From positions 1,715,001-1,779,000 of the forward strand of contig NZ_JANJZA010000001.1 in assembly GCF_026157035.1 (NCBI RefSeq): 64,000 nucleotides of DNA. Reading direction: 5' to 3'. Below are positions 12,480 through 64,000 of this stretch, one piece after another. Both the position numbers and the translations under genes were made by a program. The notes under the pieces are model-generated. The model worked only from the letters and a program-made list of their open reading frames with translations, made no database searches and was not told the origin of the DNA. Position 1 is the stretch's first letter; the number at the start of each line of letters is the position of its first letter. This stretch comes from Sphingomicrobium nitratireducens. Its GTDB lineage: Bacteria > Pseudomonadota > Alphaproteobacteria > Sphingomonadales > Sphingomonadaceae.

Positions 12480-13141
12480 AGCGCGGTCACGTCGACCACG
12501 CGCAGGCGGCGTCCGCCGCGCTCGGCATCGATTACGCCGGACGAACGCAAATCGGTGAACTGCCGACTGACCGTCTCGATCGTCAGCCCCAGATAATCGG
12601 CGATCTCCTGGCGTGCGATCGGCAGGTCGATGGTCCCATCGCACCCGCGCGGAAGCGACAGCAGGAACCAGGCAAGCCGCGCCCGGGCGCTCTTGCGTCC
12701 GAGCACCAACTGCCGTTCGCGCGCTTCACGAAGGCTCTTGAGCGTCCGCTCTAGTAATGCGCGTTCGAGCTGGGGCTGATCGTCGAGCACGCGTTCGAAG
12801 CCCGAGCGCGGGAAAATGCACAGGTCGGTGTCGGCGAGCGCCTCGGCGGTCACCGCGCTTTCTTCCTCGAATGGCTCGCCGATGAAATCGCCCGAAAAGA
12901 GCAACCCGACCGTCTGTTCACGCCCGTCGGCGGTCGAGGCCTGCAGCTTGAGCGCGCCCGTGACGATGTTCGCACAAATCGGGTTATCATCGCCTTCCCA
13001 GGTGACGACGCTTCCTTTGGGCACCACCTTGCGGCGACCGAGCAGACTGAGATCGAGCAGCTGCTTGTCGCCCAGCGAACCGCACAGCGCCTTGTCGCGC
13101 ACAAGACAGTCGAGACAGCGTTGGGGGAGACTCTCTTCCAT
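12461..13141 (-). CDS. fnrL: Crp/Fnr-family oxygen-sensing regulator (FnrL-like)
   Basis: The protein has 226 residues. Four cysteines sit where Fnr holds its oxygen-labile [4Fe-4S] cluster: Cys9, Cys12 and Cys20 at the N-terminus and Cys108 in a DTDLCIFPRSGF segment equivalent to Fnr Cys122. A cyclic-nucleotide-binding-like beta domain and dimer helix follow. The C-terminal helix-turn-helix carries E189-x2-S192-R193 in the recognition helix, the residues that read TTGAT half-sites. Several matching boxes lie in the neighbouring 6 kb. The start at 13141 follows a GGGCGGGG stretch. It is the likely local activator of narK, moaA and nnrS. Confidence 0.92.
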   Translation of the reverse strand: MEESLPQRCLDCLVRDKALCGSLGDKQLLDLSLLGRRKVVPKGSVVTWEGDDNPICANIVTGALKLQASTADGREQTVGLLFSGDFIGEPFEEESAVTAEALADTDLCIFPRSGFERVLDDQPQLERALLERTLKSLREARERQLVLGRKSARARLAWFLLSLPRGCDGTIDLPIARQEIADYLGLTIETVSRQFTDLRSSGVIDAERGGRRLRVVDVTALQDAAE

Positions 13142-13708
13142 AGCCCCGCCCACTGCCAGCAAATCGAAGGTTTGTCAGCCCATCTACATTCAAGCGGCAT
13201 CAGCTTCGAGCCGCACAGGTCGACAGTTGGGCCGGAAACAGACTGGCCGCTCTTGGCGCTGCCGACCATCAAATCAGCCGATCGGCCAAGACGAGGCCTC
13301 AACGTCCGCTAACGACCCAATTGCGGGCATCCCGAAACTTCTTGATATCTTCAGCTCCAGACGGATGATCTCGGGGGAGGTCTTGAAGTAGGGGAAGGGT
13401 GAAGTAGACTTCTTGGTGGGGGCATCTAGCGTCCTATCCTACCTACTTCTTGCAAGGCTTTTTTTCTCTGAGGAGATTCGCCAAAGCCGCTTTGATTGCG
13501 GAGGCCCGAAGCGCAGGTCGGTATTGGGCCGATCTGGCGATCAATCTCGAGGATGACGTCGCGGCCCCCAACCAACAGCAGGTTCTCGACGTCCATTGTC
13601 CAGTGTATTAACAGACTGCTACGGTCAAATCAAAAGCAGGCCACCCGATTCGAAGAAGTTCTAAGCCAGTTCAGTCTGTGTGGCGAACCACAACACAGAA
13701 AGTGTGTA
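13142..13708. other. Intergenic stretch, no supported gene
   Basis: These 567 bp upstream of fnrL and of the amidohydrolase hold no coding region I can support. GC content falls toward the right, marking the entry into the island. I see no Fnr box and no copy of the tRNA-Gln 3' end that would mark the far island boundary. Confidence 0.5.
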
Positions 13709-15226
13709 ATGCGAGCGATTGAAATTTTCCTTGCATGGGTAATGGCTGCGACGGCTTTCCCAGCCTCATGCCTTGCCCAATCTATTGCCATTGAGGATGT
13801 TACGATCGTCGATGTGCAGCGAGGCGCGCTGCAACCCGGCCGAACAGTTCTAATCGAAGACGGACGAATTTCAGTTGTCGGTCCGGCGGCACAGGTAGAG
13901 TTTCCTTCTGATGTCAAAATTGTGGACGGTACCGGTCGATTCCTCATGCCCGGTCTGTGGGACATGCACGTCCACACCATTAGTCCAGGTTTCGCTCCGG
14001 GCGCCGCAATTGACGACCTTGCGGCCCTTTATCTCGCCAACGGGATCACTGGCGTTCGTGAGATGGGGTACTACCCAGAGACGACGTTGGAGCTTCGACG
14101 GCGGATCGACGACGGGACAATACCGGGCCCACGTATGGTAATCGGCGGGATGGTGGATGGTTCACCGGCGGAATGGCCGTTCGCGATTTCCGTTAGTTCG
14201 GCCGATGATGCGCGGGCGGTGGTGAGGCGGCTCAAAGAACAAGGCTTCGACTTTGTAAAGGCTTATTCCTTTCTGTCGCGCGAAGCATACTTCGCGCTAG
14301 TCAACGAGGCGAGAGTCGTCGGCATGCCGGTCGTGGGACATATACCGATTACCGTAAGCGCGTCGGAGGCGGCCGAAGCGGGTCAAGTGGGGATTGAGCA
14401 CCTTGGCGATATGTACACGATGGCGATTGCGTGTTCCGACGCCGAAGAAGACGTCCGCTCTCTGGTTTCCGCGTCTCCTGAGACCCGTGAGGGACGCGTT
14501 GAAGCTCTTCTCGCCGGAGCGGACCTCGCCTTAAAGCGCTTCGACCGGGAGAAGTGTCGCTCAGTGATCAAGGAGATGGCAAAACGGGGAGTTTGGCAAA
14601 CTCCTACCGTCTTTGCCATGCAGGCGGTGACAGCGAGCGCGATCGAGTATTCCCCGCCACTCGATCGCAGATCTTGTTATCTCCCTAAGACCATCCTCGA
14701 CTTCTGGCGTGCGGACCCCACGGGAGCGAGGACTGAGCTGGATGTGCAGCGCCGCCTTGCTCATTTTTACATCTATCGCTCGGTCATGAAACTCATGCTG
14801 GAAGAGAATGTCCGCATGCTAGCCGGAACCGACAGCCCCGTTCCTAACGTTTACCCGGGATTTGCACTGCACGACGAACTTGAGGCCATGGTCAAGTTCG
14901 GCATGAGTCCCGTGGATGCGCTTCGCGCAGCCACTTCAGCGCCCGCCGAATTCCTGGGCCTGGCGAACGAGTTGGGCGCTGTAGAGGCCGGCAAAGCGGC
15001 TGATTTGGTGCTCCTTAGTCAAAATCCGCTGGACGACATTAACGCTATCCGGGCCATTGAAGCCGTGATTTCTAAGGGACGTATGTTTTCTCGACTGGAC
15101 CTAGACTCACTTCTTGCCGAAGCCAGAGATAATTCCACCGCGCGCTGTACCTGCTCCGAATGCGACACGGCAGACCCTGCGTCACCCCACACCATTGGGC
15201 TTTCTCGAACTGCAGGCGGTAACTAA
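13709..15226 (+). CDS. Exported amidohydrolase family protein
   Basis: The protein has 505 residues with a signal peptide ending near FPASCLAQ, so it is exported. The metal-dependent amidohydrolase fold is shown by DMHVH near residue 92 (HxH metal ligands), GHIP, a GIEHLGD His and AGTDSP (catalytic Asp). It belongs to the imidazolonepropionase/prolidase-like group, several members of which cleave dipeptides; the substrate here is unknown. The start at 13709 begins the signal peptide; the frame is open further upstream without homology-like content. Lower GC and AT-richer codons than its neighbours and the adjacent integrases suggest transfer. It overlaps the truncated integrase convergently by 4 nt. 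Confidence 0.85.
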   Translation: MRAIEIFLAWVMAATAFPASCLAQSIAIEDVTIVDVQRGALQPGRTVLIEDGRISVVGPAAQVEFPSDVKIVDGTGRFLMPGLWDMHVHTISPGFAPGAAIDDLAALYLANGITGVREMGYYPETTLELRRRIDDGTIPGPRMVIGGMVDGSPAEWPFAISVSSADDARAVVRRLKEQGFDFVKAYSFLSREAYFALVNEARVVGMPVVGHIPITVSASEAAEAGQVGIEHLGDMYTMAIACSDAEEDVRSLVSASPETREGRVEALLAGADLALKRFDREKCRSVIKEMAKRGVWQTPTVFAMQAVTASAIEYSPPLDRRSCYLPKTILDFWRADPTGARTELDVQRRLAHFYIYRSVMKLMLEENVRMLAGTDSPVPNVYPGFALHDELEAMVKFGMSPVDALRAATSAPAEFLGLANELGAVEAGKAADLVLLSQNPLDDINAIRAIEAVISKGRMFSRLDLDSLLAEARDNSTARCTCSECDTADPASPHTIGLSRTAGGN

Positions 15227-15558
15227 TTTTGGCGGTCCAGTGATGCCGAGTATATTGATAGCTCAGCCCGTCCTTCCGTAGGCTTGGACGCTTTCCGTTG
15301 GATGATCGTGGCTCGGTGTCGGATCTCCGCGCCTGCTATGAGGTCGCCGATCTTCAGCTCGACGAGATCGCAGCCTCGTAGCTTGCTGTCGATCGCGAGA
15401 TCAAACAGCGCCCTGTCACGAAAGCGTTGCTCCCTATCGAGGTGAAAACGGATCGCCCAGATCTGCTTCTGCGTCAGCGGTCGCTTTGGGCCAACCTGTG
15501 TGCCTGCGTTCCAAGGGCGCATCGAACGCGCGCGCGGATCGAATTCTGACATTCCCAT
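15223..15558 (-). pseudogene. Truncated tyrosine recombinase (integrase) fragment
   Basis: The 111 residues resemble the N-terminal half of a short (about 200 aa) phage-integrase-family protein, with GPKRPLTQKQIWAIRFHL and the first catalytic Arg in SKLRGCDLVELKIGDL. Soon after the RATIIQRKASKP segment the expected sequence stops, and the HxxR and catalytic Tyr boxes are absent. A ribosome site AAAGGAG precedes the start at 15558. The break falls at about 15.29 kb, next to the amidohydrolase, and probably marks a recombination junction. Confidence 0.75.
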
Positions 15559-15755
15559 CTGACTTCTCCTTTGGCCGGCATGGCCAGGAAAGAAACGGTC
15601 GTGCACGGGAAGGCGAATGGGACCGAGGTGGCTCGCTTGGCATCGTGACCGAAACGTTCAGTCAGCCTACGACCAAATGTCTCGAACGTGCGAACGACCG
15701 GAATGGGGCGCTGTGCAGACACAACTGACAACAGCACCCGGGACTGCCTCCGAGC

Positions 15756-17681
15756 CTATTTTCCGACAACTGGCTCGCATCTCAGGTTCGGCACATGGCC
15801 CCTGTAGACAGGCACCTCGATCGCTGCAGGCTGTAAGTCAGCGGTCAAATTCGGCAGGTGCATCATATTCTCGAGCATGATCTGCAGCTGAGTGGCTTCC
15901 GAATACCGTTCATCGGTCTCGCTTTCTCCGACGTGACCCATCAGGTCGGCGCGTTCTTCTTTCGTCACCCGGCCACGCTTGAGCGACACGTTAAAGCTGT
16001 GACGCACACCATGAATCTCGGCACCCTCGGATAACCCTCCGCGCTTCCGAATGTGCGCCCAGGCGAGATCGTAGAACTGATCGCCGAAGCTCTCGACGTC
16101 GTTGGTCGGCCGGAGTTCGGGAAACAGCGCCTTGTAACGTCGTTTCTCAATCTCCCTGACATAATCGATGAGCCCGAGACGGATCAGTTCGGGGTGGAGC
16201 GGCAGGCTTCTGGCGGACGCAGCGGTCTTGATGTCGCCGTTATGGTTCTTCCTGATCCTCACGAACGGGACAGGGGCGTTGAGGACAAAGTCACAGGCGC
16301 ACAGCTTGCAGATTTCTTCCCGACGGCAACCGAGATAGTAGACCAGCAGCGGAACCCAGTAGAAGAAGTCATGAATGATCGCCTTGCCAGCCTTGAAACG
16401 GCGATTGAGGGTCGCCTGCCCTTTGCCTCCACCATGAGGCTGGCTGCCCGTGAAGGTCGGCAGCGCGAAAACCTTCCGCATGTCTTCCTCGCTCGTGGGC
16501 GCCCGCTCGTCACGAGCGCGTCGAGAGCGACCATTTTTGCTCACGCGAAGCTTGTCGGTCGTAAAGTTGTTCATCGCGTAGCCCTGCCCCTCTGCCCAAT
16601 CGAGCAATCTATTGAGGCCAGTGACATCGCGATTGATTGTAGTAGAGGAAGGTCCGCCATCGATCTTCCCGCTCATCGCTTCGTTCTTCGCGACGAGATC
16701 CAGGATCATCTGCGCTTCCTTATCGCACAGAGGGCTGAGCTTCTGATTGATAAGCCGGCGCTTCGTCATGAACGTCGCGAGATCGCGCTGCGTGATTGAA
16801 CTGACCGGAATTTCGCCCATAAGTAGGGTAAAGAGGCGACCGAGGGACATACGCTGTCGTGCAGTTTTCGCCGACCAAACCCCATCGCCTTCCTTGGCTG
16901 CAGCTGCGCGAATGCTGATCTCATACAGGTCAGGTGACGTGTCGACCGGGGAAGCCGCCGGCTCAGCCACGGCTTCGGCAGGCATGGGTTCGGGCGACGA
17001 CTGAGCTGAGGGCGCGCTTCTCGTCGCCTCGTCGGCGGCAAATCGAGACTGGGCCGGCAAGCCGCGCATGATGAGGTCCGCATCCCAGCACGCGTCTCGG
17101 TATGGCTCATACATAGCGGCCGTCACCTGCCGGCGGATGCCGTCGTGTGGCTCGAAGCCCATTTCGCGCAAACGAGCATCGACAAAGCGTGGCTTGATGA
17201 AGACATGCCCTTTCTCAGCGAGGGCAATGACCTGCTCAAGCTCCTGAACGCGCTTCAGTCCCCACTTCCGGGCCAACACTTCGCGCTCGGCGCCTGTGAA
17301 GGGAGCGTCGCCTCCATGCTCGAAACAGCGTTGATAGTAGTCTCCGAACGCCCTGTTTGCGACGGAGTGAGTATCGCTTAGCTGCGGCGAACATCGCTGC
17401 TGCTCACAGTAACGGCCCACGAGCTCGTCATAGGCCTGGCGGGCCATGGCCCGGATCTCACTCTCGGTCGGCCGCGCGTCGGCGGCGCGGATTTTCTTCT
17501 CCAGCATACGCAACACTTCCCCCGTGGATGCGGTCAGAAATGCCCCCCGGCAGACCGCCTCCTGTTTTTGATATGTTCTCAAGGATACACGCGCCCTGAG
17601 ACCTCGAAAAGCGGAGATTGAAATTTTCTTCCGCCACCAGAAAACCTGACCGCGGCGATAGATGTTGGGAGGATTCGACAT
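15756..17681 (-). CDS. Tyrosine-type site-specific integrase beside tRNA-Gln
   Basis: The protein has 641 residues, longer than phage integrases, with a long N-terminal DNA-binding part and a catalytic domain in about the last 260 residues. Catalytic boxes are visible: GCRREEICKL (Arg), a beta-turn Lys in KTAASARSLPL, HGVRHSFN (HxxR), MGHVGES (His) and DERY (Tyr). It resembles large island integrases with DUF6538-like N-termini. The start at 17681 is preferred over an upstream GTG because the preceding residues look unrelated. The gene begins about 105 bp from the tRNA 3' end and is oriented away from it, the normal arrangement for a tRNA-integrated island. Confidence 0.9.
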   Translation of the reverse strand: MSNPPNIYRRGQVFWWRKKISISAFRGLRARVSLRTYQKQEAVCRGAFLTASTGEVLRMLEKKIRAADARPTESEIRAMARQAYDELVGRYCEQQRCSPQLSDTHSVANRAFGDYYQRCFEHGGDAPFTGAEREVLARKWGLKRVQELEQVIALAEKGHVFIKPRFVDARLREMGFEPHDGIRRQVTAAMYEPYRDACWDADLIMRGLPAQSRFAADEATRSAPSAQSSPEPMPAEAVAEPAASPVDTSPDLYEISIRAAAAKEGDGVWSAKTARQRMSLGRLFTLLMGEIPVSSITQRDLATFMTKRRLINQKLSPLCDKEAQMILDLVAKNEAMSGKIDGGPSSTTINRDVTGLNRLLDWAEGQGYAMNNFTTDKLRVSKNGRSRRARDERAPTSEEDMRKVFALPTFTGSQPHGGGKGQATLNRRFKAGKAIIHDFFYWVPLLVYYLGCRREEICKLCACDFVLNAPVPFVRIRKNHNGDIKTAASARSLPLHPELIRLGLIDYVREIEKRRYKALFPELRPTNDVESFGDQFYDLAWAHIRKRGGLSEGAEIHGVRHSFNVSLKRGRVTKEERADLMGHVGESETDERYSEATQLQIMLENMMHLPNLTADLQPAAIEVPVYRGHVPNLRCEPVVGK

Positions 17682-17786
17682 TGAACTGGCCCGAACAGGG
17701 GCCACAGCGAGGGTGCACACTGAGGGGGCACACTCGCCGCTGGCCTTGTGGAATTAGCCAGCGATTTCAATGGATTAGAAAAGTTA

Positions 17787-17861
17787 TGGCTGGGGCGGCA
17801 GGATTCGAACCTGCGCATGCCGGTACCAAAAACCGGTGCCTTACCGCTTGGCTACACCCCA
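17787..17861 (-). tRNA. tRNA-Gln(TTG)
   Basis: The minus strand folds as a full cloverleaf with acceptor TGGGGTG pairing with CGCCCCA, T-loop GGTTCGAATCC and encoded CCA. The 7-nt anticodon loop TTTTGGT reads TTG, giving glutamine. Its 3' end faces the integrase gene, so it is the probable attachment site of the neighbouring island. Confidence 0.95.
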
Positions 17862-38976: not shown

Positions 38977-39147
38977 TTGGTGGTTTCATTGTTTCATGCC
39001 TTACGAGCGCCCCAATGCTCCTTTATCAAGATCGAGCTACCAGTTGCCGACCACGGACTATTTGGCCTTAGGGCCCTCTCTTCCTCACATCGCTGCTTAT
39101 AGCCTGAAGCCGGATCGTATTGGTCCGGTCCATGAGGAAGATATCCC

Positions 39148-39354
39148 ATGACCGAAGGTACCGTTAAATTTTTCAACGCCCAGAAGGGCTTTGGCTTCAT
39201 CACCCCCGATAATGGCGGTGGCGACGCATTCGTCCACATCACTGCCGTGGAAGCTGCCGGCCTTGGTGTGCTGAACGAGGGGCAGCGTATCGGCTACGAG
39301 CTTCAGGACGATAACAAGGGCAAGCAGAGCGCTTGCAATCTCGTCGCGCTCTAA
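39148..39354 (+). CDS. cspA: Cold-shock protein (CspA family)
   Basis: A single cold-shock domain of 68 residues that binds single-stranded RNA/DNA. RNP1 (KGFGFI) and RNP2 (DAFVHI) are intact, with the usual GTVKFFN opening. A well-formed terminator follows 26 bp after the stop, so it is a monocistronic unit. The 200-bp 5' region would suit the leader control typical of such genes, but no specific element is recognised. Confidence 0.95.
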   Translation: MTEGTVKFFNAQKGFGFITPDNGGGDAFVHITAVEAAGLGVLNEGQRIGYELQDDNKGKQSACNLVAL

Positions 39355-39379
39355 GCGTCGATTGACGATTAAACGAAAA

Positions 39380-39410
39380 GGGCCTGCCGGTGACGGAAGG
39401 CCCTTTTTTT
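39380..39410 (+). terminator. Rho-independent terminator after cspA
   Basis: GGGCCT-G-CCG pairs with CGG-A-AGGCCC around a GTGA loop, followed by seven T residues. Confidence 0.9.
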
Positions 39411-39538
39411 CATGCGATGGCCAGTTGCCAATGTTTGCTCTAAGGTGAGGGTGCTATCGGTCGCTCGTGGTCACGCGCCCTCAGGGTGCGACCGGCCCAT
39501 TGGTCTCTTCTAGCATCATGCAATCGAGGAGATTGATT

Positions 39539-39778
39539 ATGTCCATTCAAACCGACTTCTTTCTGGAACGCGCTGCTCATGAAGCGACGCGAGCAAAAGC
39601 GGAAAGCCTTGCGAACGTGCGCAATGGGCATTTGCGGGCGGAGGCCGCGTGGCTGCAATTGGCTGAGCGATCGGCGCGCGGCGATGAACTTCGGGCGAAG
39701 GATGCTCAGCGCAAGGCCGACCTTGCCGTTGAGCAGGCACGGCAAGCTGCCGACGCCATGCCAGGCGGACGCGACTAA
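39539..39778 (+). CDS. Small helical hypothetical protein
   Basis: The 79 residues are almost wholly helical and charged, with a segment HLRAEAAWLQLAERSARGDELR that resembles the repeat-like helices of neighbouring small genes. GAGGAG lies 8 nt before the ATG. No signal or membrane span. The end overlaps the convergent small gene by 4 nt. Not recognised by family name. Confidence 0.6.
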   Translation: MSIQTDFFLERAAHEATRAKAESLANVRNGHLRAEAAWLQLAERSARGDELRAKDAQRKADLAVEQARQAADAMPGGRD

Positions 39779-39945
39779 GCTTTTTTCGGCTCAGTCTCGT
39801 CCACGGCGCCGTCGATTGGCTTGGCAAATTGGGAATGGCGTTTCGCAATTCTGCGATAAATTGCACGGAGGTATGATGAACTCGCTGCCCGGGAGCGATC
39901 GGTGGCCTCACGTTCGAGTTTATCGTGATCTATTTCTCTAGTCAT
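39775..39945 (-). CDS. Small hypothetical protein, coupled to the upstream small gene
   Basis: From ATG 39945 (MTREIDHDKLERE) it encodes 56 charged, helical residues with YLRAIYRRIAKRHSQFA. The start overlaps the stop of the next minus-strand small gene as ATGA, which supports translation of both. Function unknown. Confidence 0.5.
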   Translation of the reverse strand: MTREIDHDKLEREATDRSRAASSSYLRAIYRRIAKRHSQFAKPIDGAVDETEPKKA

Positions 39946-40109
39946 CGCGAGCTCACGCGCACATTGGCGTCGTACGCACCAAATTCGATCAGTTTGCGAT
40001 AGTGGCGCGCCGTCTCCAAGTAGAGCCATTTGAGATCTGGGTTCTGGGTGGTGCGCGACAGGACGCGACAACGTCTCTCACGCGCTTTGAAAATGTCGAT
40101 GTCGGCCAT
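39942..40109 (-). CDS. Small helical hypothetical protein
   Basis: From 40109 (MADIDIFKARERR, with AGGA 8 nt upstream) it gives 55 residues; ATG at 40118 or a start at 40130 are alternatives. The pattern RxLxxxxxxPxxxxxYLExARHYRxLI resembles small proteins common in Sphingomonads and the other minus-strand genes in this cluster. Function unknown. Confidence 0.55.
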   Translation of the reverse strand: MADIDIFKARERRCRVLSRTTQNPDLKWLYLETARHYRKLIEFGAYDANVRVSSR

Positions 40110-40300
40110 GTTACTCATCCTGGCAATCAAGCGTCGATGCTTAGTCCTCGACGGTCACAGGATGCTTGGGTGACAAATTTCGTGTGATGGGCTCTTGTAG
40201 CAGATATTCCGAGCATTGACCAAAGAGGCATGCCGCATCGGGTCATTAAGAGCAAAGGATGTGGTCGAAACCGTCGTCCAGCTTAAGCTCTGACTATTCT

Positions 40301-40513
40301 CTAGGGACGCTGGGCGCCCACCTTCACAGTCGACCTGACTCCAATCAAGTGCGCAAGCTCACGAGGCCGTTCGCTTGGCAGGATTGTCGACAGTTGATTG
40401 AGCAGCCTTCTATTATACCGAGCGGCCAATGCCCGATGAATGTTTGCGACTACTGGGTTTGTTGCCCTCTCAGCCAATCGACGGTGTTCGATGGACCGCT
40501 TTCGAAGTCTCAA
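40301..40513 (-). CDS. Small helical hypothetical protein, TTG start
   Basis: 70 residues if TTG at 40513 is used (no ATG fits). EHRRLAERATNPVVANIHRA followed by LAARYNRRL shows the same helix pattern as the gene at 39942-40109. A GAG lies 8 nt before the TTG. Low-GC surroundings and the unusual start leave the call tentative. Confidence 0.45.
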   Translation of the reverse strand: MRLRKRSIEHRRLAERATNPVVANIHRALAARYNRRLLNQLSTILPSERPRELAHLIGVRSTVKVGAQRP

Positions 40514-40679
40514 AAGTTGCTCGTGAGGGATAACGCTTCCTCGCTATTCGACGGGAGCGCGACGGTCGTCTCTCAGTCGTAGATTGGCCGACTGCAGGAC
40601 CTACGATATTCAACTCATAAGCCTTTTTGGAGCTCTTGTCATTGTCGGCTTTTGGGTCGATCGCGGCATGGTCGGTTTC

Positions 40680-40696
40680 GGGGTGGAAAGCGGACA
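40680..40696. repeat. 17-bp repeat, copy 2
   Basis: Exact second copy of GGGGTGGAAAGCGGACA, 1.72 kb from the first and in the same orientation. Confidence 0.7.
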
Positions 40697-40738
40697 CGAC
40701 ACCATCTCCGTATGCTTATTGCTTCGCTACAACCAGGG

Positions 40739-40975
40739 TCATTTTCGACGACTTTCTGCAATGGCGTCGCTCAAATTGTCATACGTGTAGGGCCCCACCC
40801 GATATCGCGTGACAACAATGCGTTCGATGCCTTTAGGGAGCGCTGTGCGGGCTTCAGGCACAATTGTGCCACCTTCATTTTCCCACGCGTTGACTCGCTT
40901 CTTTTGCTCGCTCGATTTTTGAATAGACTTCACGCTGAAGCAGCTTCTTTTTCGATAGCGCCAAGGCTTGGCCAA
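40739..40975 (-). CDS. Small hypothetical protein
   Basis: Up to 78 residues. The C-terminal third (RIVVTRYRVGPYTYDNLSDA) looks like a short folded beta motif; the N-terminus is Lys/Ser-rich and its start (TTG at 40975) is uncertain. It overlaps the next small gene by 46 nt. Tentative. Confidence 0.4.
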   Translation of the reverse strand: MAKPWRYRKRSCFSVKSIQKSSEQKKRVNAWENEGGTIVPEARTALPKGIERIVVTRYRVGPYTYDNLSDAIAESRRK

Positions 40976-41133
40976 CCGCGTTCAACTAGTCCTTTCGCGT
41001 GCCGCCAAGCGGCAATGCGGCCAGCATAGAGGTCGACGAGATCGAGATACAATTCTCGGTCGCTGTGTGAACGAGCCACTTGCGCATTCAACTTCGCAAG
41101 CTGGTGATTATAGAGAAGGCGATTTACATCCAT
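40930..41133 (-). CDS. Small helical hypothetical protein
   Basis: 67 residues from ATG 41133 with AAGG 9 nt upstream. YNHQLAKLNAQVARSHSDRE followed by LYLDLVDLYAGRI follows the same two-helix pattern as the genes at 39942 and 40301. Function unknown. Confidence 0.5.
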   Translation of the reverse strand: MDVNRLLYNHQLAKLNAQVARSHSDRELYLDLVDLYAGRIAAWRHAKGLVERGWPSLGAIEKEAASA

Positions 41134-41227
41134 CTCGTGGACCTTTCTGGAGGAAGCAGCGACCCGTCCGGCAAGGCCATGCCGCCGAACGGTTCGCTAC
41201 TGAAGCCGGGCTCTTGGCCGCGAAAGT

Positions 41228-41464
41228 TTAGTGACCGCGACTCTGGTCGTTGCCTGGCTGGCTCATCTGCAGGTTCACCGCTTGGCGTTTGCCGCCGTCG
41301 ACCGTCTTGGTTTCATAACCGAAACGCTGGTCGACGCGGGGTTCCTTGTCGGACTGCTTGAGGTCGGCCTTGGCGAACATCAGCGCATCGCCGCCCTTTT
41401 CGGGGGTAATCGTGCCGGTGCCCTTGGTAGCGTCATAGGAGGCGATCTTGCCATAATTGGTCAT
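41228..41464 (-). CDS. Divergent cold-shock-domain-like protein
   Basis: 78 residues. GKIASYDATKGTGTITPEKGG and DALMFAKADL align with the RNP regions of cold-shock proteins, but the aromatic residues of RNP1 (KGFGFI) are replaced by KGTGTI and RNP2 FVH by LMF, so nucleic-acid binding may be altered. A similar degenerate CSD group is known in Sphingomonads. It lies 1.9 kb from the canonical cspA in the opposite orientation. Confidence 0.75.
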   Translation of the reverse strand: MTNYGKIASYDATKGTGTITPEKGGDALMFAKADLKQSDKEPRVDQRFGYETKTVDGGKRQAVNLQMSQPGNDQSRGH

Positions 41465-41731
41465 AACATGCGTCTTTCTTTTCGGCGCGTGCGGCCGAAA
41501 TCGACCGCCTATGCGCGGGCTAAGAAAACGAAAAAGAAAGAGAGGAGAGCAATAAAGCCGCTCTCAGGACGTTCGATCGCGCTTGGTAGCTTAACTTATA
41601 AATAGTCACTATTTGCAATTATTCAATGGTGAATCCGAAACGATTTCACTCCACTGGTCTCATTTTTATCGCTTTATTTTGTGATTAGGCGCAAGACGAT
41701 GTGGGACATCCTGTTCCGTTAGGAATACATC

Positions 41732-41866
41732 ATGGTGAAGCGTCGCAACAAAAGGGGGCGCGAGGCGCGCAAACCTAAGACCGACAAGGGACCGAAGACC
41801 AATGCCAGTCAGCCCAGCCAGAAGCCCGGGATAATCCCTGGCCTCGAAAACATGCGAAACAAATAA
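41732..41866 (+). CDS. Very small basic protein (44 aa)
   Basis: AGGA precedes the ATG by 8 nt. The product is strongly basic (MVKRRNKRGREARKPKTDKG at the start) and ends in GLENMRNK. Similar Arg/Lys-rich microproteins with the GREARKPK motif occur in related bacteria, from memory. Its frame runs opposite to a longer minus-strand frame (41666-41998) that has no recognisable features. Confidence 0.5.
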   Translation: MVKRRNKRGREARKPKTDKGPKTNASQPSQKPGIIPGLENMRNK

Positions 41867-42003
41867 GACAGCCAAAGGGCGGCAGAAATACCCCCCATCG
41901 GCATAAGGACTGAAGACCTCGTAAGGCCGGCCGTCAGTTTTTTTTTGAACCCAACGAAATCGCTCGCTTTCGTCCGCAATTGGGTCGTTAATGGACATTG
42001 CGC

Positions 42004-59667: not shown

Positions 59668-59709
59668 GCGGGTGTAGCTCAATGGTAGAGCAGGAGCTTC
59701 CCAAGCTCC
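59668..59709 (+). pseudogene. tRNA-Gly(CCC) 5' fragment, cut after the anticodon stem
   Basis: GCGGGTGTAGCTCAATGGTA begins a normal acceptor strand and D-arm, then GGAGC-TTCCCAA-GCTCC forms the anticodon arm with anticodon CCC. After 59709 the expected variable loop, T-arm and CACCCGC acceptor strand are absent and unrelated sequence follows. The gene cannot make a tRNA from here. The break coincides with the fall in GC that begins the terminal island. Confidence 0.85.
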
Positions 59710-60261: not shown

Positions 60262-61050
60262 GTGGGTGAGCGCTGGACGGTTGCGAACGAAGCGCAATTG
60301 GCACGCCTGATAGCGATCATCGCGATGGGGCAGGTTAGTCAAGCCGCGCACATCGTCTCGAGCCTGACGCCGGCTGCCCCGGCCTTTGCCTTCGCGGAAT
60401 TGCGGTCCGAAGCAATCATCCGACTGACGGTGCAGGACGAGCCGCGGACACCGCGTATCGGCTATCCGCGCTGGCAGCGTGACGGATTCATGTTCGAGGC
60501 CATTTCATGGATTGCCGCCCGCCAGTCTCATGGTCCTGCTGTGCTTATGAAAGACCCGCATGTCAGTGCGACGAGCCAAGGCTTGGATGGTCTCATGCTC
60601 GAGTTGTCTCCAGATAGGTCGGCGGTCGAGATTACGACGATCTTCGAAGATAAATGCACCGACGATCCGAAGTCGATTTTTGCCGGTAAAGTGATGCCGG
60701 GATTCCAGGAGCGTCACGACAATCGGCGGAGTGCGGAAATCATCGCGACGGCGAGCGCGCTACTGACCAGAACGGGTATCAGCGACGAGTTCGCAGCGAG
60801 GATGTCTGCCGCAGTTACCGACCGTAACCGTCGCCGTTACCGCGCCGCCGTAACCACCGTCACGGAACTGGACAATGACGCTGCTCGCGCCAGCATCTTC
60901 TCCACTTATGGAGATTTGGCTGGACTAACGACCGACCAGCGCCAAGCGGCCTGCTTTGTCGTTCCCGCTGAACTGCGGCCGTGGTTCGACCAACTCGGCC
61001 TTCAGGCCGTGGCCTATCTCAACTCCCTAGAGGACGACATCAATGTTTGA
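60262..61050 (+). CDS. HamA-like (DUF1837-like) putative PD-(D/E)xK nuclease
   Basis: 262 residues from a GTG at 60262; no ribosome site is clear, the frame is open back to a stop at 60124-60126, and the first ATG is codon 22. A PD-(D/E)xK-like core is visible: Glu79 in a helix (FEAISWIAA), Asp109 in SQGLDGLMLEL, and Glu129-x-Lys131 in TTIFEDKCTDDP at the end of the next strand. This matches the layout of HamA, the effector of Hachiman defence. Its last 8 nt overlap the helicase gene (ATGTTTGA). AT-richer than the flanking chromosome. Confidence 0.7.
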   Translation: MGERWTVANEAQLARLIAIIAMGQVSQAAHIVSSLTPAAPAFAFAELRSEAIIRLTVQDEPRTPRIGYPRWQRDGFMFEAISWIAARQSHGPAVLMKDPHVSATSQGLDGLMLELSPDRSAVEITTIFEDKCTDDPKSIFAGKVMPGFQERHDNRRSAEIIATASALLTRTGISDEFAARMSAAVTDRNRRRYRAAVTTVTELDNDAARASIFSTYGDLAGLTTDQRQAACFVVPAELRPWFDQLGLQAVAYLNSLEDDINV

Positions 61051-64000
61051 CGCTGAGACGTCACGCTTCCTGCGTTCGGCCCCACCGGTGCCGGATCTCG
61101 ACCCCGACATGATCCCGGCGCTCCTTACTCAGCATTATGCTGAACTAGCCTCGTCCCGGCTGAGAGGAAGCGAAGCATCGCCGCCAAATACGAACTGGCC
61201 GCTCGAGCGCATCGCTGACACCTATGAGCTTGTCGCGTCGACGCAGCGCGAGTCTCCGTCAAGAGCCGCAGCGGCGTTCGTAGCTGGGACAGCGCAGCAA
61301 ATCCTCGCCCGCCGGCAACTATTGCAGTCCCCCGACCAACCAATCTCCAACATTGACCGCGACCGGGTCGATCCCTCGCTCTCGGCCGCAATCCTATTCC
61401 TGATGGCTGAACAGTATGGCGACGCCAACGAGGCCGCCTTGCAAATCAGGCTCGCGCCCGGGGCCGAAACCTTCGAAGCTGCGATCGTGAGCGAGCATGT
61501 CGCCGACTTGGCGCGTGGCAGGCTGGTCCGTATCATGGATCGCTCAGCCCGCTGGCGGCGGCCAGCGCATCCCAGCGGAATGGAAGAGCGGGCGCTTGCT
61601 GCGCTGCTAGAAACCATAGCGACGGGCATCGAACTCTTGGCAGCGCATATTCTCCGCGCCCCCCCTCCGGAATCGATCGTCGGTCGCTTCGCCAGCTCGC
61701 GCGATGCGTTCGATGCCGTTGTCGGGCTGGCAGTCGAACGCCGCGACTTTGGCGCCGCCACTTTCGACGTTGGTGCGCTCTATCCCGGCCCCTTCCACCT
61801 CGCATCGTTGCTGTCCGCCGCCGACGGCGTTCTCAAGGCGGCGAGCTTGCACAATACCCCGATGCCAAGCGGCGCCGACGCGGCGACCTGGGAACGTTGG
61901 CTTCGATTTCGAGCGGATAAGTTTCCCTTCGTTTGGCCGAACCATCGCAAGGCGATTGCCGAGGAATTTCACCAGACGGGGGTTTCCTCGGTCGTCGTGC
62001 TTCCGACAGGTGCCGGTAAGACCACAGTCTCCTCGCTCAAGATCGCTGGCGTTCTTGCGCGGGGAAAGAAGGTTGCCTTCCTTGCCCCCACGCATGCCTT
62101 GGTCGATCAGCTAACTGACGACCTCCAAGAAATGTTTCCGAGCGAGATTATCGAATCGGTCATTTCCAACGACTTCGATCTTCTCCTCGGCGATGATGCC
62201 GCGTTCCACGATATTGAGGTCATGACCCCCGAGCGTTGCTTGGCGATGCTCTCCTTCGCGCCCGAAGCATTTGCCGACGTCGGATTGCTCGTCTTCGACG
62301 AGTGCCATCTATTGAGCCCGCAGACGGGTAAGATCCGCCGCGCACTCGACGCGATGCTGTGTGTATTGGCCTTTGCGGAGGCTGCTCCCGAAGCCGATCT
62401 GCTCCTGCTGTCCGCGATGGTGCGCAATGGCGCCGAACTCGCAGACTGGATTGGAACGCTGACCAACCGGCGGAGTGTTGCGGTCGACCTCCTGTGGAAG
62501 CCGAGTCGTCAAGCCAGAGGCGTAGTCATATATGATGAGACGGAACTCGACGCCTCGCGCACGCGCGCCTGGGAGCAACAGAATGCCGCGGACGCTGCCG
62601 CTCCCAAGCCTGCAAAGGATTTGCGCACAGTGGCGCAAAGGGAGCTGAGTGCGCGGCCCTACGGAATCTGGGGCCTCCAGCATAACTGGCATTCTATTTC
62701 TGAAGGCAAGGCCTGGGTCGTCACAACCGCGCTGCTGGACGCGCCCGTATTGCTTGCTGGGTCGATCAAGACCGGCCCACTGAGGCTCAAGCCGAACGTC
62801 AACGAGGTTGCCGCGCGGCTTGCGGCCACTGCCAGTCTTCGTGAATTGAAGACCATCGTGTTCGTGAACACGAAGCGTGATGCGGTTTCTGTCGCGCGTG
62901 AGATCGCGACGGAACTGGGAACTCGTATTCCAGCAACAGAATCGGAAAGCGAGCGGTGGGCAGCACTCGAAATCGAACTCGGCGGTCTCAAACATTCCCT
63001 CATCACGCCCGAGCATTGCGCCGTCCCGCACAACTCGTCGATGCTTCGGCTTGAGCGGGAGCTCGCCGAGCGAATGTTCAAACGAAACAACGGCGCCAAT
63101 GTCATCGTGGCGACGCCCACTCTAGCGCAGGGCTTGAACTTGCCTGCGCAGCTCGCAATCCTTGCCGGCGACAAGCGCGCCGATCGCGCCGGTGGTCGCG
63201 AGAATCTCGAGGCGCACGAAATATTGAATGCCGCGGCGCGCGCCGGCCGCGCAGGTCACCTAGCGAACGGGCTGGTCCTGCTGATCCCTGAGCCCATCAT
63301 TACGTTCCGCAGCGGACAGCCACTAAACGCGAACCTCATAGACAAGCTCAAAGGCGTTCTCCCGGAGGACGACCACTGCGTGACCATCACGGATCCGCTG
63401 GAAACCGTTCTGGACCGCCTCATGGAAGGTCAGACGCTGAATTCCGACGTTCAGTATACGATCAACCGCATGGCTGTCCTAGCCAGCGGGGAGAATGCGG
63501 ATGATGCTGCTCACCTTTTCAATCTTCAAAAGTCGTTCGGTTACTATAAGGCGGCGAGCCGAGCCGCCGCCGACGAGTTCGAAGCCAAGATAGATCAGCT
63601 TCGCGCGTCGATCGCAGCTCAGCGCGATCCGGATATCGATCACAACGTCGCAATCCTATCTTCCCAAAGCGGCCTTTCCGCAAACTTGCTTGTTGCGCTC
63701 AAGGTCCGTGTCCATGCCGATCTGGCCAAGCTTCCGAACTCGGTCGCTGATTGGTTGGCCTGGACATTCAGGTGGCTTTCCGAGGATTCCGAGGCACGCT
63801 CCGCTCTGCTGTCGGACGTGTCGGACAGCATCTTGGCAGCATGCGGTGAACCGAAGGGCGGCGCCCTTGGCCCCCAGCATCTCGACCATTTACTTCGCGG
63901 CCTTATGGCGTGGATCAATGGCGACAATCTGCGTTCGATTGAAGTTATACTCGGTGGTGAGCCCGACCATCACACTCCGACGAAGCGTGTCTGCCCGCGA
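61043..64000 (+). CDS. Ski2-like superfamily 2 helicase (HamB-like), partial
   Basis: 986 residues are visible and the frame is open at the window edge. An N-terminal helical region of about 290 residues precedes the helicase core: Walker A PTGAGKT at 321-327, motif Ia APTHALVDQ near 348, DECH at 419-422, SAM in place of SAT at 457-459, motif IV IVFVNTKRD near 605, motif V ATPTLAQGLNLP near 690 and motif VI NAAARAGRAG near 729. The order after a small ExK nuclease with overlapping ORFs is that of hamA-hamB. The missing C-terminus prevents a firm family call. Confidence 0.8.
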   Translation, partial: MFDAETSRFLRSAPPVPDLDPDMIPALLTQHYAELASSRLRGSEASPPNTNWPLERIADTYELVASTQRESPSRAAAAFVAGTAQQILARRQLLQSPDQPISNIDRDRVDPSLSAAILFLMAEQYGDANEAALQIRLAPGAETFEAAIVSEHVADLARGRLVRIMDRSARWRRPAHPSGMEERALAALLETIATGIELLAAHILRAPPPESIVGRFASSRDAFDAVVGLAVERRDFGAATFDVGALYPGPFHLASLLSAADGVLKAASLHNTPMPSGADAATWERWLRFRADKFPFVWPNHRKAIAEEFHQTGVSSVVVLPTGAGKTTVSSLKIAGVLARGKKVAFLAPTHALVDQLTDDLQEMFPSEIIESVISNDFDLLLGDDAAFHDIEVMTPERCLAMLSFAPEAFADVGLLVFDECHLLSPQTGKIRRALDAMLCVLAFAEAAPEADLLLLSAMVRNGAELADWIGTLTNRRSVAVDLLWKPSRQARGVVIYDETELDASRTRAWEQQNAADAAAPKPAKDLRTVAQRELSARPYGIWGLQHNWHSISEGKAWVVTTALLDAPVLLAGSIKTGPLRLKPNVNEVAARLAATASLRELKTIVFVNTKRDAVSVAREIATELGTRIPATESESERWAALEIELGGLKHSLITPEHCAVPHNSSMLRLERELAERMFKRNNGANVIVATPTLAQGLNLPAQLAILAGDKRADRAGGRENLEAHEILNAAARAGRAGHLANGLVLLIPEPIITFRSGQPLNANLIDKLKGVLPEDDHCVTITDPLETVLDRLMEGQTLNSDVQYTINRMAVLASGENADDAAHLFNLQKSFGYYKAASRAAADEFEAKIDQLRASIAAQRDPDIDHNVAILSSQSGLSANLLVALKVRVHADLAKLPNSVADWLAWTFRWLSEDSEARSALLSDVSDSILAACGEPKGGALGPQHLDHLLRGLMAWINGDNLRSIEVILGGEPDHHTPTKRVCPR

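What the first reader, a model, noticed from the sequence alone, without database searches (positions are those of the whole stretch)
60262..64000. Candidate antiphage module: D...ExK nuclease plus Ski2-like helicase (Hachiman-like)
Two overlapping genes open an AT-richer island at a broken tRNA. The first has Glu79/Asp109/Glu129-x-Lys131 in a PD-(D/E)xK-like arrangement. The second has a complete Ski2-type helicase motif set with a SAM variant of motif III and an N-terminal extension of about 290 residues. Established knowledge: Hachiman is HamA (DUF1837 nuclease) followed by HamB (helicase), which senses DNA damage or phage DNA and degrades DNA. Inference: this is Hachiman or a divergent relative. 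The low apparent similarity outside the motifs leaves room for a new subtype.
Basis: partly seen in the sequence, partly recalled or inferred. Interest (0 to 1): 0.75.

Follow-up and report, generated by a model that had tools for sequence, protein, structure and literature searches.

The report
Divergent Hachiman-like nuclease–helicase defence pair
Two overlapping bacterial genes encode a probable DNA-cutting enzyme and a helicase that look like a remote, so far unnamed relative of the Hachiman anti-phage system, carried on a mobile defence island and found in many bacteria.

Summary
At 60262-61050 and 61043-64276 (276 bases past the window) lie a 262-aa protein and a 1077-aa Ski2-type helicase, overlapping by 8 bases. 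The first matches no Pfam, PADLOC or NCBIfam model at E<=1, PF08878 (HamA) included. Yet among 350,542 PDB chains its AlphaFold2 model (pLDDT 94) matches HamA best (8vx9_A, E 2.3e-3, probability 0.99, but TM only 0.41). The helicase model matches HamB best, end to end (8vxa_A, E 1.2e-28, TM 0.65). The pair recurs in 79 of 83 distinct loci, mostly Pseudomonadota, also Bacillota isolates. D109, E129 and K131 are invariant in 76 of 76 aligned nucleases. The helicases form their own clade (100/100) with DECH and SAM motifs, apart from HamB and PDC-M23B; the sister group is unresolved. The pair opens a 34-kb integrase-bearing island at tRNA-Gly with McrBC-like, Hhe/PDC-S37-like and type IIG genes. 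Best reading: a divergent Hachiman-like system in which the helicase senses aberrant or phage DNA and unleashes the nuclease. Function is inferred; nothing was assayed. By the PF08878 test the nuclease is not a HamA, so I file the pair as a new variant of the Hachiman kind.

The parts
59668..59707 (+). 5' 40 nt of tRNA-Gly(CCC): left attachment remnant of the island; identical to the start of an intact tRNA-Gly at C1:1808753, beyond the window
60262..61050 (+). gene 1: HamA-like PD-(D/E)xK-type nuclease, 262 aa from GTG (start codon unsure; most relatives have a longer N-terminus)
60496..60498 (+). codon of Glu79: E in 36 and Q in 40 of 76 aligned relatives; profile alignment pairs it with an invariant HamA Glu
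60586..60588 (+). codon of Asp109 (invariant; within GLDG)
60646..60654 (+). codons of Glu129-Asp130-Lys131: the ExK motif (E and K invariant)
61043..64000 (+). gene 2: HamB-like Ski2-type helicase; 1077 aa, the gene goes on to position 64276 in window numbering
61043..61942 (+). N-terminal, mostly alpha-helical extension (residues 1 to about 300), in the place of the HamA-binding NAH domain of HamB
   Evidence: sequence profile comparison inconclusive
62003..62023 (+). Walker A, PTGAGKT (residues 321-327)
62297..62308 (+). motif II, DECH (residues 419-422)
62411..62419 (+). motif III, SAM (residues 457-459)

Best explanation
The two genes are a nuclease-helicase defence system of the Hachiman kind, of a divergent subtype whose nuclease lies outside the HamA (DUF1837, PF08878) family by sequence. 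Most likely mechanism: the two proteins form a complex through the helicase's N-terminal helical domain, which holds the nuclease inactive. The Ski2-type motor scans DNA, loads on damaged, single-stranded or phage replication DNA, and its ATP-driven movement releases or unlocks the D109/E129/K131 nuclease, which then cuts phage and host DNA and stops the infection in that cell. Shown here: fold similarity of both parts, invariant catalytic and motor residues, fixed pairing and overlap, defence-island setting. Inferred from HamAB (PMC12278908, passages): complex formation, the trigger, release and DNA clearance.
For: Nuclease model pLDDT 94: HamA chains 8vx9_A and 8vxy_A rank 1 and 2 among 350,542 PDB chains, Foldseek probability 0.99 and 0.93; the other 48 listed rows have 0.23 or less. 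Helicase model pLDDT 86.7: HamB chains hold ranks 1-3, E 1.2e-28 to 6.1e-25, TM by query 0.62-0.65, over 1164-1229 columns; Hel308 holds ranks 4-9 with 811-848 columns. The two proteins were searched apart and landed on the two halves of one complex. Profile comparison with 13 HamA proteins aligns E79, D109, E129 and K131 with HamA's E, D, E, K, P 0.0049; with a 17-protein HamA alignment the score 28.1 was reached by 0 of 100 column shuffles, reversed control P 0.45. Helicase core against long HamB: hhalign 4.5e-39. Pair present in 83 of 87 loci examined, 79 of 83 after leaving out four records fetched twice; 3 of the 4 misses are contig ends, the fourth keeps only a short helicase start. The commonest junctions are overlaps of 8 or 1 bases: 59 of the 77 pairs counted. 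The island also holds an McrC (PF10117) with an AAA ATPase beside it, a PDC-S37/Hhe-like protein, an MmeI-type IIG enzyme, MobA/MobL and an integrase. Among 110 of 291 neighbour ORFs, from 42 loci, PADLOC at 1e-20 lists Gabija, Septu, Qat, DRT3 and Olokun proteins (25 of 78 matching families shown); 0 of 35 ORFs from the rest of the window.
Against: The HamA fold match is modest: TM 0.41/0.42, rmsd 9.7, no match at E <= 0.001. Profile support depends on the HamA sample: P 0.069, 0.06, 0.0049, 0.2, 0.025, 0.0048 and 0.37 in seven comparisons, and against the HamA proteins of the long-HamB class alone it is not significant and out of register. The glycine before the ExK of HamA's D-GExK is missing. 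By sequence the N-terminal domain is not shown to be HamB's NAH (P 0.032, reversed control 0.79), and the fold search does not list which residues it aligned. The helicase trees do not join this family to HamB: with Lhr rows included, Lhr and PDC-M23B lie among the same unresolved branches; without Lhr the best tree puts it with short HamB, unsupported (52/26). A PDB profile search ranks SLH1, ASCC3 and Brr2 helicases above HamB. Sampled neighbours also include many ordinary metabolic genes. No activity, complex or phage assay exists.
Confidence: 0.75

Rival explanations
1. An independent nuclease-helicase defence family: a PD-(D/E)xK nuclease from another branch joined a Ski2-like helicase on its own and resembles HamAB by convergence. 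The trigger and the target could differ, for example RNA or a particular replication intermediate.
For: No HamA profile match at E<=10 in any of 7 members. Foldseek TM only 0.41. Helicase clade with its own motifs DECH and SAM, on a long stem, sister unresolved. N-terminal domain not alignable by profile.
Against: HamA is the top PDB hit, well ahead of other PD-(D/E)xK folds such as EcoO109I; the helicase matches HamB end to end, with TM by query 0.62-0.65 against 0.42-0.47 for the Hel308 and Pol theta rows listed; catalytic residues align in register in the better profile comparison.
Confidence: 0.16
2. It is PADLOC's candidate system PDC-M23 (M23A plus M23B), already listed.
For: PDC-M23B is the best PADLOC hit of the helicase, 1.9e-30; sizes are alike (265 and 1090 aa).
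Against: No PDC-M23A match in 7 members at E<=10; hhalign against one M23A protein P 0.13; the one M23B examined has DEAQ and MPY where this family has DECH and SAM, core identity 23.7%. The best stretch of the PADLOC match lies in the motor core, as do those of the HamB matches, which are as strong (1.3e-29).
Confidence: 0.04
3. A DNA-repair or housekeeping nuclease-helicase pair, not a defence system.
For: Ski2-like DNA helicases such as Hel308 and Pol theta (repair roles recalled) match the motor well.
Against: Sparse distribution: 4 of 199 family genomes and 5 of 398 phylum genomes, the own genome and one doubtful hit included; a mobile island with three further defence-type loci; on plasmids.
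Confidence: 0.05

Closest known systems
Hachiman HamAB, long-HamB class (E. coli ECOR31, PDB 8VX9, 8VXA, 8VXY)
   Same: Two genes, nuclease first then helicase; nuclease about 260 aa; helicase of 1112-1179 aa in my nine examples, with an N-terminal extension before the motor; best structural match of both proteins; catalytic E/D/E/K aligned in register in the better profile comparison.
   Different: Nuclease not found by PF08878 or PADLOC HamA models; ExK without the preceding Gly; DECH and SAM instead of DEGH and SAI/SAV; core identity about 25%.
Short-HamB Hachiman (helicase of about 710-880 aa)
   Same: HamA-type nuclease and Ski2-like helicase.
   Different: Shorter N-terminus; motif III begins GP in 6 of 9; core identity 21%; separate side of the tree (100/100).
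PADLOC candidate PDC-M23
   Same: Similar gene sizes and order; top PADLOC hit of the helicase.
   Different: Nuclease does not match M23A; the one M23B examined has DEAQ and MPY.
AbpAB and HamMAB (Hachiman variants; passages of PMC12278908 and PMC12799240)
   Same: Ski2-like helicase paired with a HamA-fold protein; DNA-damage sensing.
   Different: Their HamA part is fused to another domain and has lost its catalytic residues (AbpA, virtually all protease-HamA fusions); here the active site is invariant in 76 of 76.
Hel308 and DNA polymerase theta helicase domain
   Same: Next best structural matches of the helicase, over fewer columns.
   Different: No nuclease partner of this kind (recalled); the NAH domain is stated to be absent from Ski2 relatives of HamB (PMC12278908, passage).

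Membership tests
Hachiman | HamA of the DUF1837 family (PF08878 or PADLOC HamA models) | tested here: not met
   No match at E<=1 for the window protein and no HamA match at E<=10 for it and 6 relatives; PF08878 search of G000: no match
Hachiman | HamA fold of the nuclease | tested here: met
   Top two PDB hits are HamA, Foldseek probability 0.99 and 0.93; weak in degree: TM 0.41, E 2.3e-3
Hachiman | D-GExK active site | tested here: inconclusive
   D109, E129, K131 invariant in 76 of 76; the residue before E is F (61), C (12) or Y (3), not G
Hachiman | Ski2-like SF2 helicase HamB | tested here: met
   PADLOC HamB 1.3e-29, best stretch 297-500; HamB is PDB ranks 1-3 by structure
Hachiman | N-terminal alpha-helical (NAH) domain of HamB that binds HamA | tested here: inconclusive
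   The structure match spans 1164-1229 columns, so it should take in the N-terminus, but the aligned range is not listed and the profile test gives P 0.032
Hachiman | hamA directly upstream of hamB | tested here: met
   83 of 87 loci, 79 of 83 distinct
Hachiman | Helicase clade shared with HamB | tested here: inconclusive
   Own clade 100/100; long plus short HamB as one side not rejected (p-AU 0.166), nor this family plus long HamB (0.495); the best tree has it with short HamB at 52/26
Hachiman | DNA-damage-triggered DNA degradation and phage defence | not testable with these tools
   needs the bench
PDC-M23 | M23A nuclease | tested here: not met
   no PADLOC match in 7 members; hhalign with one M23A protein P 0.13

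The most novel reading that the evidence does not exclude
A widespread nuclease-helicase immune system, sister to and not part of Hachiman, whose nuclease family has no model in the libraries searched and is annotated 'hypothetical protein'; its helicase may read a different DNA (or RNA) signal and its nuclease may be gated in another way than HamA.
Probability: 0.3. Interest if true: 0.65.

Novelty: new variant of a known kind. Interest (0 to 1): 0.52.

Why it matters
The three profile libraries used here name only the helicase and miss the effector, so these loci would not be called as complete Hachiman systems. They are not rare: 4 plausible genomes of 398 sampled in the phylum, the own genome included, by a single-sequence search, against 15 of 398 for PF08878 HamA by a profile search; the two search methods differ in reach. 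If the pair works like HamAB, the features shared by two remote families (D...ExK site, helical N-terminus of the motor, fixed overlap) show what the mechanism truly needs, and the differing ones (DECH/SAM, no Gly before ExK) show what is free to vary.

Tried and rejected
Straight profile scans of the nuclease found no usable match: none in Pfam, PADLOC and NCBIfam at E<=1 for the window protein; two weak Pfam names of no bearing, each in 2 of 7 members (best E 0.014); none in PADLOC; against PDB sequences one insignificant hit, the restriction enzyme R.Ecl18kI at E 1.3, with the 7-sequence profile and none with the 57-sequence profile. Search of viral contigs and of phage records with the nuclease: no relative. 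Structure search against viral proteins: no match at E<=0.001, best probability 0.54. The fifth hit of the phylum search (L010/L017) was dropped as doubtful: E 2.6e-4 and no helicase match in its locus. Helicase tree with Lhr rows as outgroup: one Lhr row (L153) has a branch of 10 and was probably read from a wrong frame, and the Lhr rows did not form one group, so I rebuilt without Lhr. Left out of the trees: the HamB of G333 (L126, a 548-aa piece), L106 (no full HamB frame found) and most members of this family (20 used). PDC-M23 as the identity: rejected on M23A and on motifs. The neighbourhood control is small and from one genome (35 ORFs of the window), and ORFs were chosen by length, so some are not genes; the answers list 25 of 78 PADLOC and 25 of 74 Pfam families and give counts per family, not the number of neighbours with any hit. 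Literature: full-text searches for Hachiman with HamA and HamB, PDC-M23, Hachiman with DUF1837, 'Hachiman-like', 'Hachiman type' or HamA from 2024, and Ski2-like helicase with Hachiman listed no paper that by title or abstract start describes such a family; one search was swamped by unrelated 'hama' words (98,151 papers, 10 listed). I read passages only of PMC12278908, PMC12799240 and PMC12839542, and only the listing of the others; the library lacks bioRxiv proper and most subscription journals, and PMC11914072 (another HamAB paper) is not held.
Full report
What is there. The window is G000:C1:1715001-1779000 of a 2.27-Mb genome. G178, of the same family, has a contig of the same length (57,041) as the Croceicoccus gelatinilyticus record NZ_JAHCBF010000012.1, so the host is a sphingomonad in the wide sense (inference). 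Gene 1 (60262-61050, 262 aa) and gene 2 (61043-64276, 1077 aa) overlap by 8 bases: the ATG of the helicase lies inside the last codons of gene 1. Gene 1 may start further upstream: its aligned relatives have about 20-30 or more extra residues in most cases, while the window frame has no ATG, GTG or TTG between the upstream stop and 60262.

The family. The nuclease finds 3 further genomes among 199 of its family (4 with its own) and 5 of 398 in the phylum sample, its own included and one hit doubtful. One pattern scan of the 84,980-species collection gave 90 relatives from 112 pattern matches, the best 80 kept, a lower bound. Most are Pseudomonadota; Bacillota include isolates (L046, L047, L050). 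One or two contigs each of Bacteroidota, Planctomycetota, Cyanobacteriota and Acidobacteriota are all from MAGs and so open to binning error. With seven loci fetched otherwise (the own one among them), 87 loci were read and 83 have the helicase beside the nuclease. The misses are L025, L094 and L096 at contig ends, and L042, where only a short start of a helicase frame follows. Some helicases are in two pieces or truncated; they were left as they are. In the 76 nucleases aligned, R73, D74, P99, G107, D109, E129 and K131 are invariant, and position 79 is E in 36 and Q in 40.

No family model names the nuclease. Public plasmid records annotate it as 'hypothetical protein' in 8 of 10 hits, the other two records having no annotation, whereas with a HamA of the long-HamB class 37 of the 40 listed hits (of 60) carry the name HamA or DUF1837.

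Structure. The nuclease model (57-sequence alignment, pLDDT 94, pTM 0.92) has a helix (70-90), a strand at 110-115 right behind D109, a strand at 122-131 carrying E129 and K131, and a following helix: the PD-(D/E)xK arrangement (recalled). Among 350,542 PDB chains the first two matches are HamA; EcoO109I, a type II restriction enzyme, comes fourth with probability 0.23. TM 0.41 and E 2.3e-3 alone would be a lead only. The helicase model (pLDDT 86.7) has HamB in ranks 1-3 over 1164-1229 columns, then Hel308 and Pol theta over about 800-915 columns; several Brr2 chains align over as many columns as HamB but with TM by query about 0.4 and rmsd near 30. That two separate searches land on the two subunits of one complex is the strongest single argument.

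Sequence profiles. Against 13 HamA proteins hhalign gives P 0.0049 and pairs E79, D109, E129 and K131 with HamA's E, D, E, K. Other HamA samples give 0.069, 0.06, 0.2, 0.025, 0.0048 and 0.37, so the signal is weak and depends on the sample; for comparison the two HamA classes find each other at 7.8e-7. With the 17-protein HamA alignment 0 of 100 column shuffles reached the observed score. The helicase core matches long HamB at 4.5e-39 (reversed 0.78), the N-terminal part at 0.032 (reversed 0.79) and the C-terminal part at 0.0027 (reversed 0.43).

Place among helicases. HamB comes in two kinds in my sample: long (1112-1179 aa, DEGH) and short (about 710-880 aa). In 20 of 20 members examined this family has DECH and SAM; 9 of 9 long HamB have DEGH and SAI or SAV; the one PDC-M23B has DEAQ and MPY. 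The tree without Lhr gives this family, long HamB and short HamB each as one side of a branch (100/100, 99/98, 100/100); which are sisters is not settled: the best tree has this family with short HamB at 52/26, and the alternatives tested are not rejected (p-AU 0.166 and 0.495). With Lhr rows, this family, long HamB, PDC-M23B and four Lhr rows fall on one side of a supported branch (97/97), unresolved among themselves. Mean core identity is highest to long HamB, 24.9%, and 20.2% to Lhr.

Surroundings. A 34-kb stretch of lower G+C lies between the 40-nt tRNA-Gly remnant and an intact tRNA-Gly preceded by a phage-type integrase. Besides this pair it carries an McrC (PF10117, 2e-67) next to an AAA ATPase (McrBC-like; PADLOC itself names only weak REase matches for the ATPase), a 1959-aa protein matching PDC-S37 and Hhe, an MmeI-type IIG restriction-methylation enzyme, a MobA/MobL relaxase, and DUF932, PP2C and metallo-beta-lactamase genes. 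It is a mobile defence island. Neighbours of relatives include Gabija, Septu, Qat, DRT3 and Olokun proteins and integrases, resolvases, Tn7-type TnsD/TniQ and conjugation genes, beside ordinary metabolic genes (110 of 291 neighbour ORFs scanned); 35 ORFs from the rest of the window gave no PADLOC hit at the same cut-off.

Mechanism. HamAB is a heterodimer in which HamB's N-terminal helical domain contributes to holding HamA; DNA loading and ATP use by HamB activate HamA, which then degrades DNA without distinction (PMC12278908, passages). The same parts appear to be in place here. I therefore commit to DNA-state sensing by the helicase and unleashing of the nuclease, at 0.75 for the Hachiman-like reading (lowered from 0.76 on re-reading the trees). 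The trigger and the complex are inferred.

Verdict. A real, widespread, unannotated relative of Hachiman: new variant of a known kind. It is not a HamA by the family's own profile test, and it probably works like Hachiman.

Noticed in passing
L149 1394-7273 (C1:1792393-1798272, beyond the window): 1959-aa protein with DUF4011, helicase parts and an MTES_1575 nuclease domain; matches PADLOC PDC-S37 and Hhe strongly.
   Followed up: partly
L002 5321-12573 (window numbering 64320 on, beyond the window): Island genes directly after the pair: a 248-aa orphan, DUF932, a PP2C phosphatase, a 355-aa orphan, a metallo-beta-lactamase with an RMMBL motif, then ORFs that were not scanned; no PADLOC match in the four scanned there. 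They could be a further unnamed module.
   Followed up: partly
C1 about 1813.7-1817.7 kb (beyond the island): Two neighbouring ORFs of about 650 aa that begin with a TIR-like motif (FLSYARAD; motif recalled, not searched).
   Followed up: no
window 39001-42000 and 13001-17700: Two AT-richer patches (53-61% G+C), the second ending near tRNA-Gln at 17787-17861; possible further islands.
   Followed up: no
L134 4137-4982; plasmid hits H20-H23 and H25: On some rhizobial plasmids a gene annotated 'restriction endonuclease' lies beside or overlaps the HamA match of the long class.
   Followed up: no
L113, L114: HamA proteins with extra N-terminal domains: L113 looks like the protease-HamA fusion of PMC12799240, L114 has another long N-terminus; both lack the ExK site by eye.
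   Followed up: no
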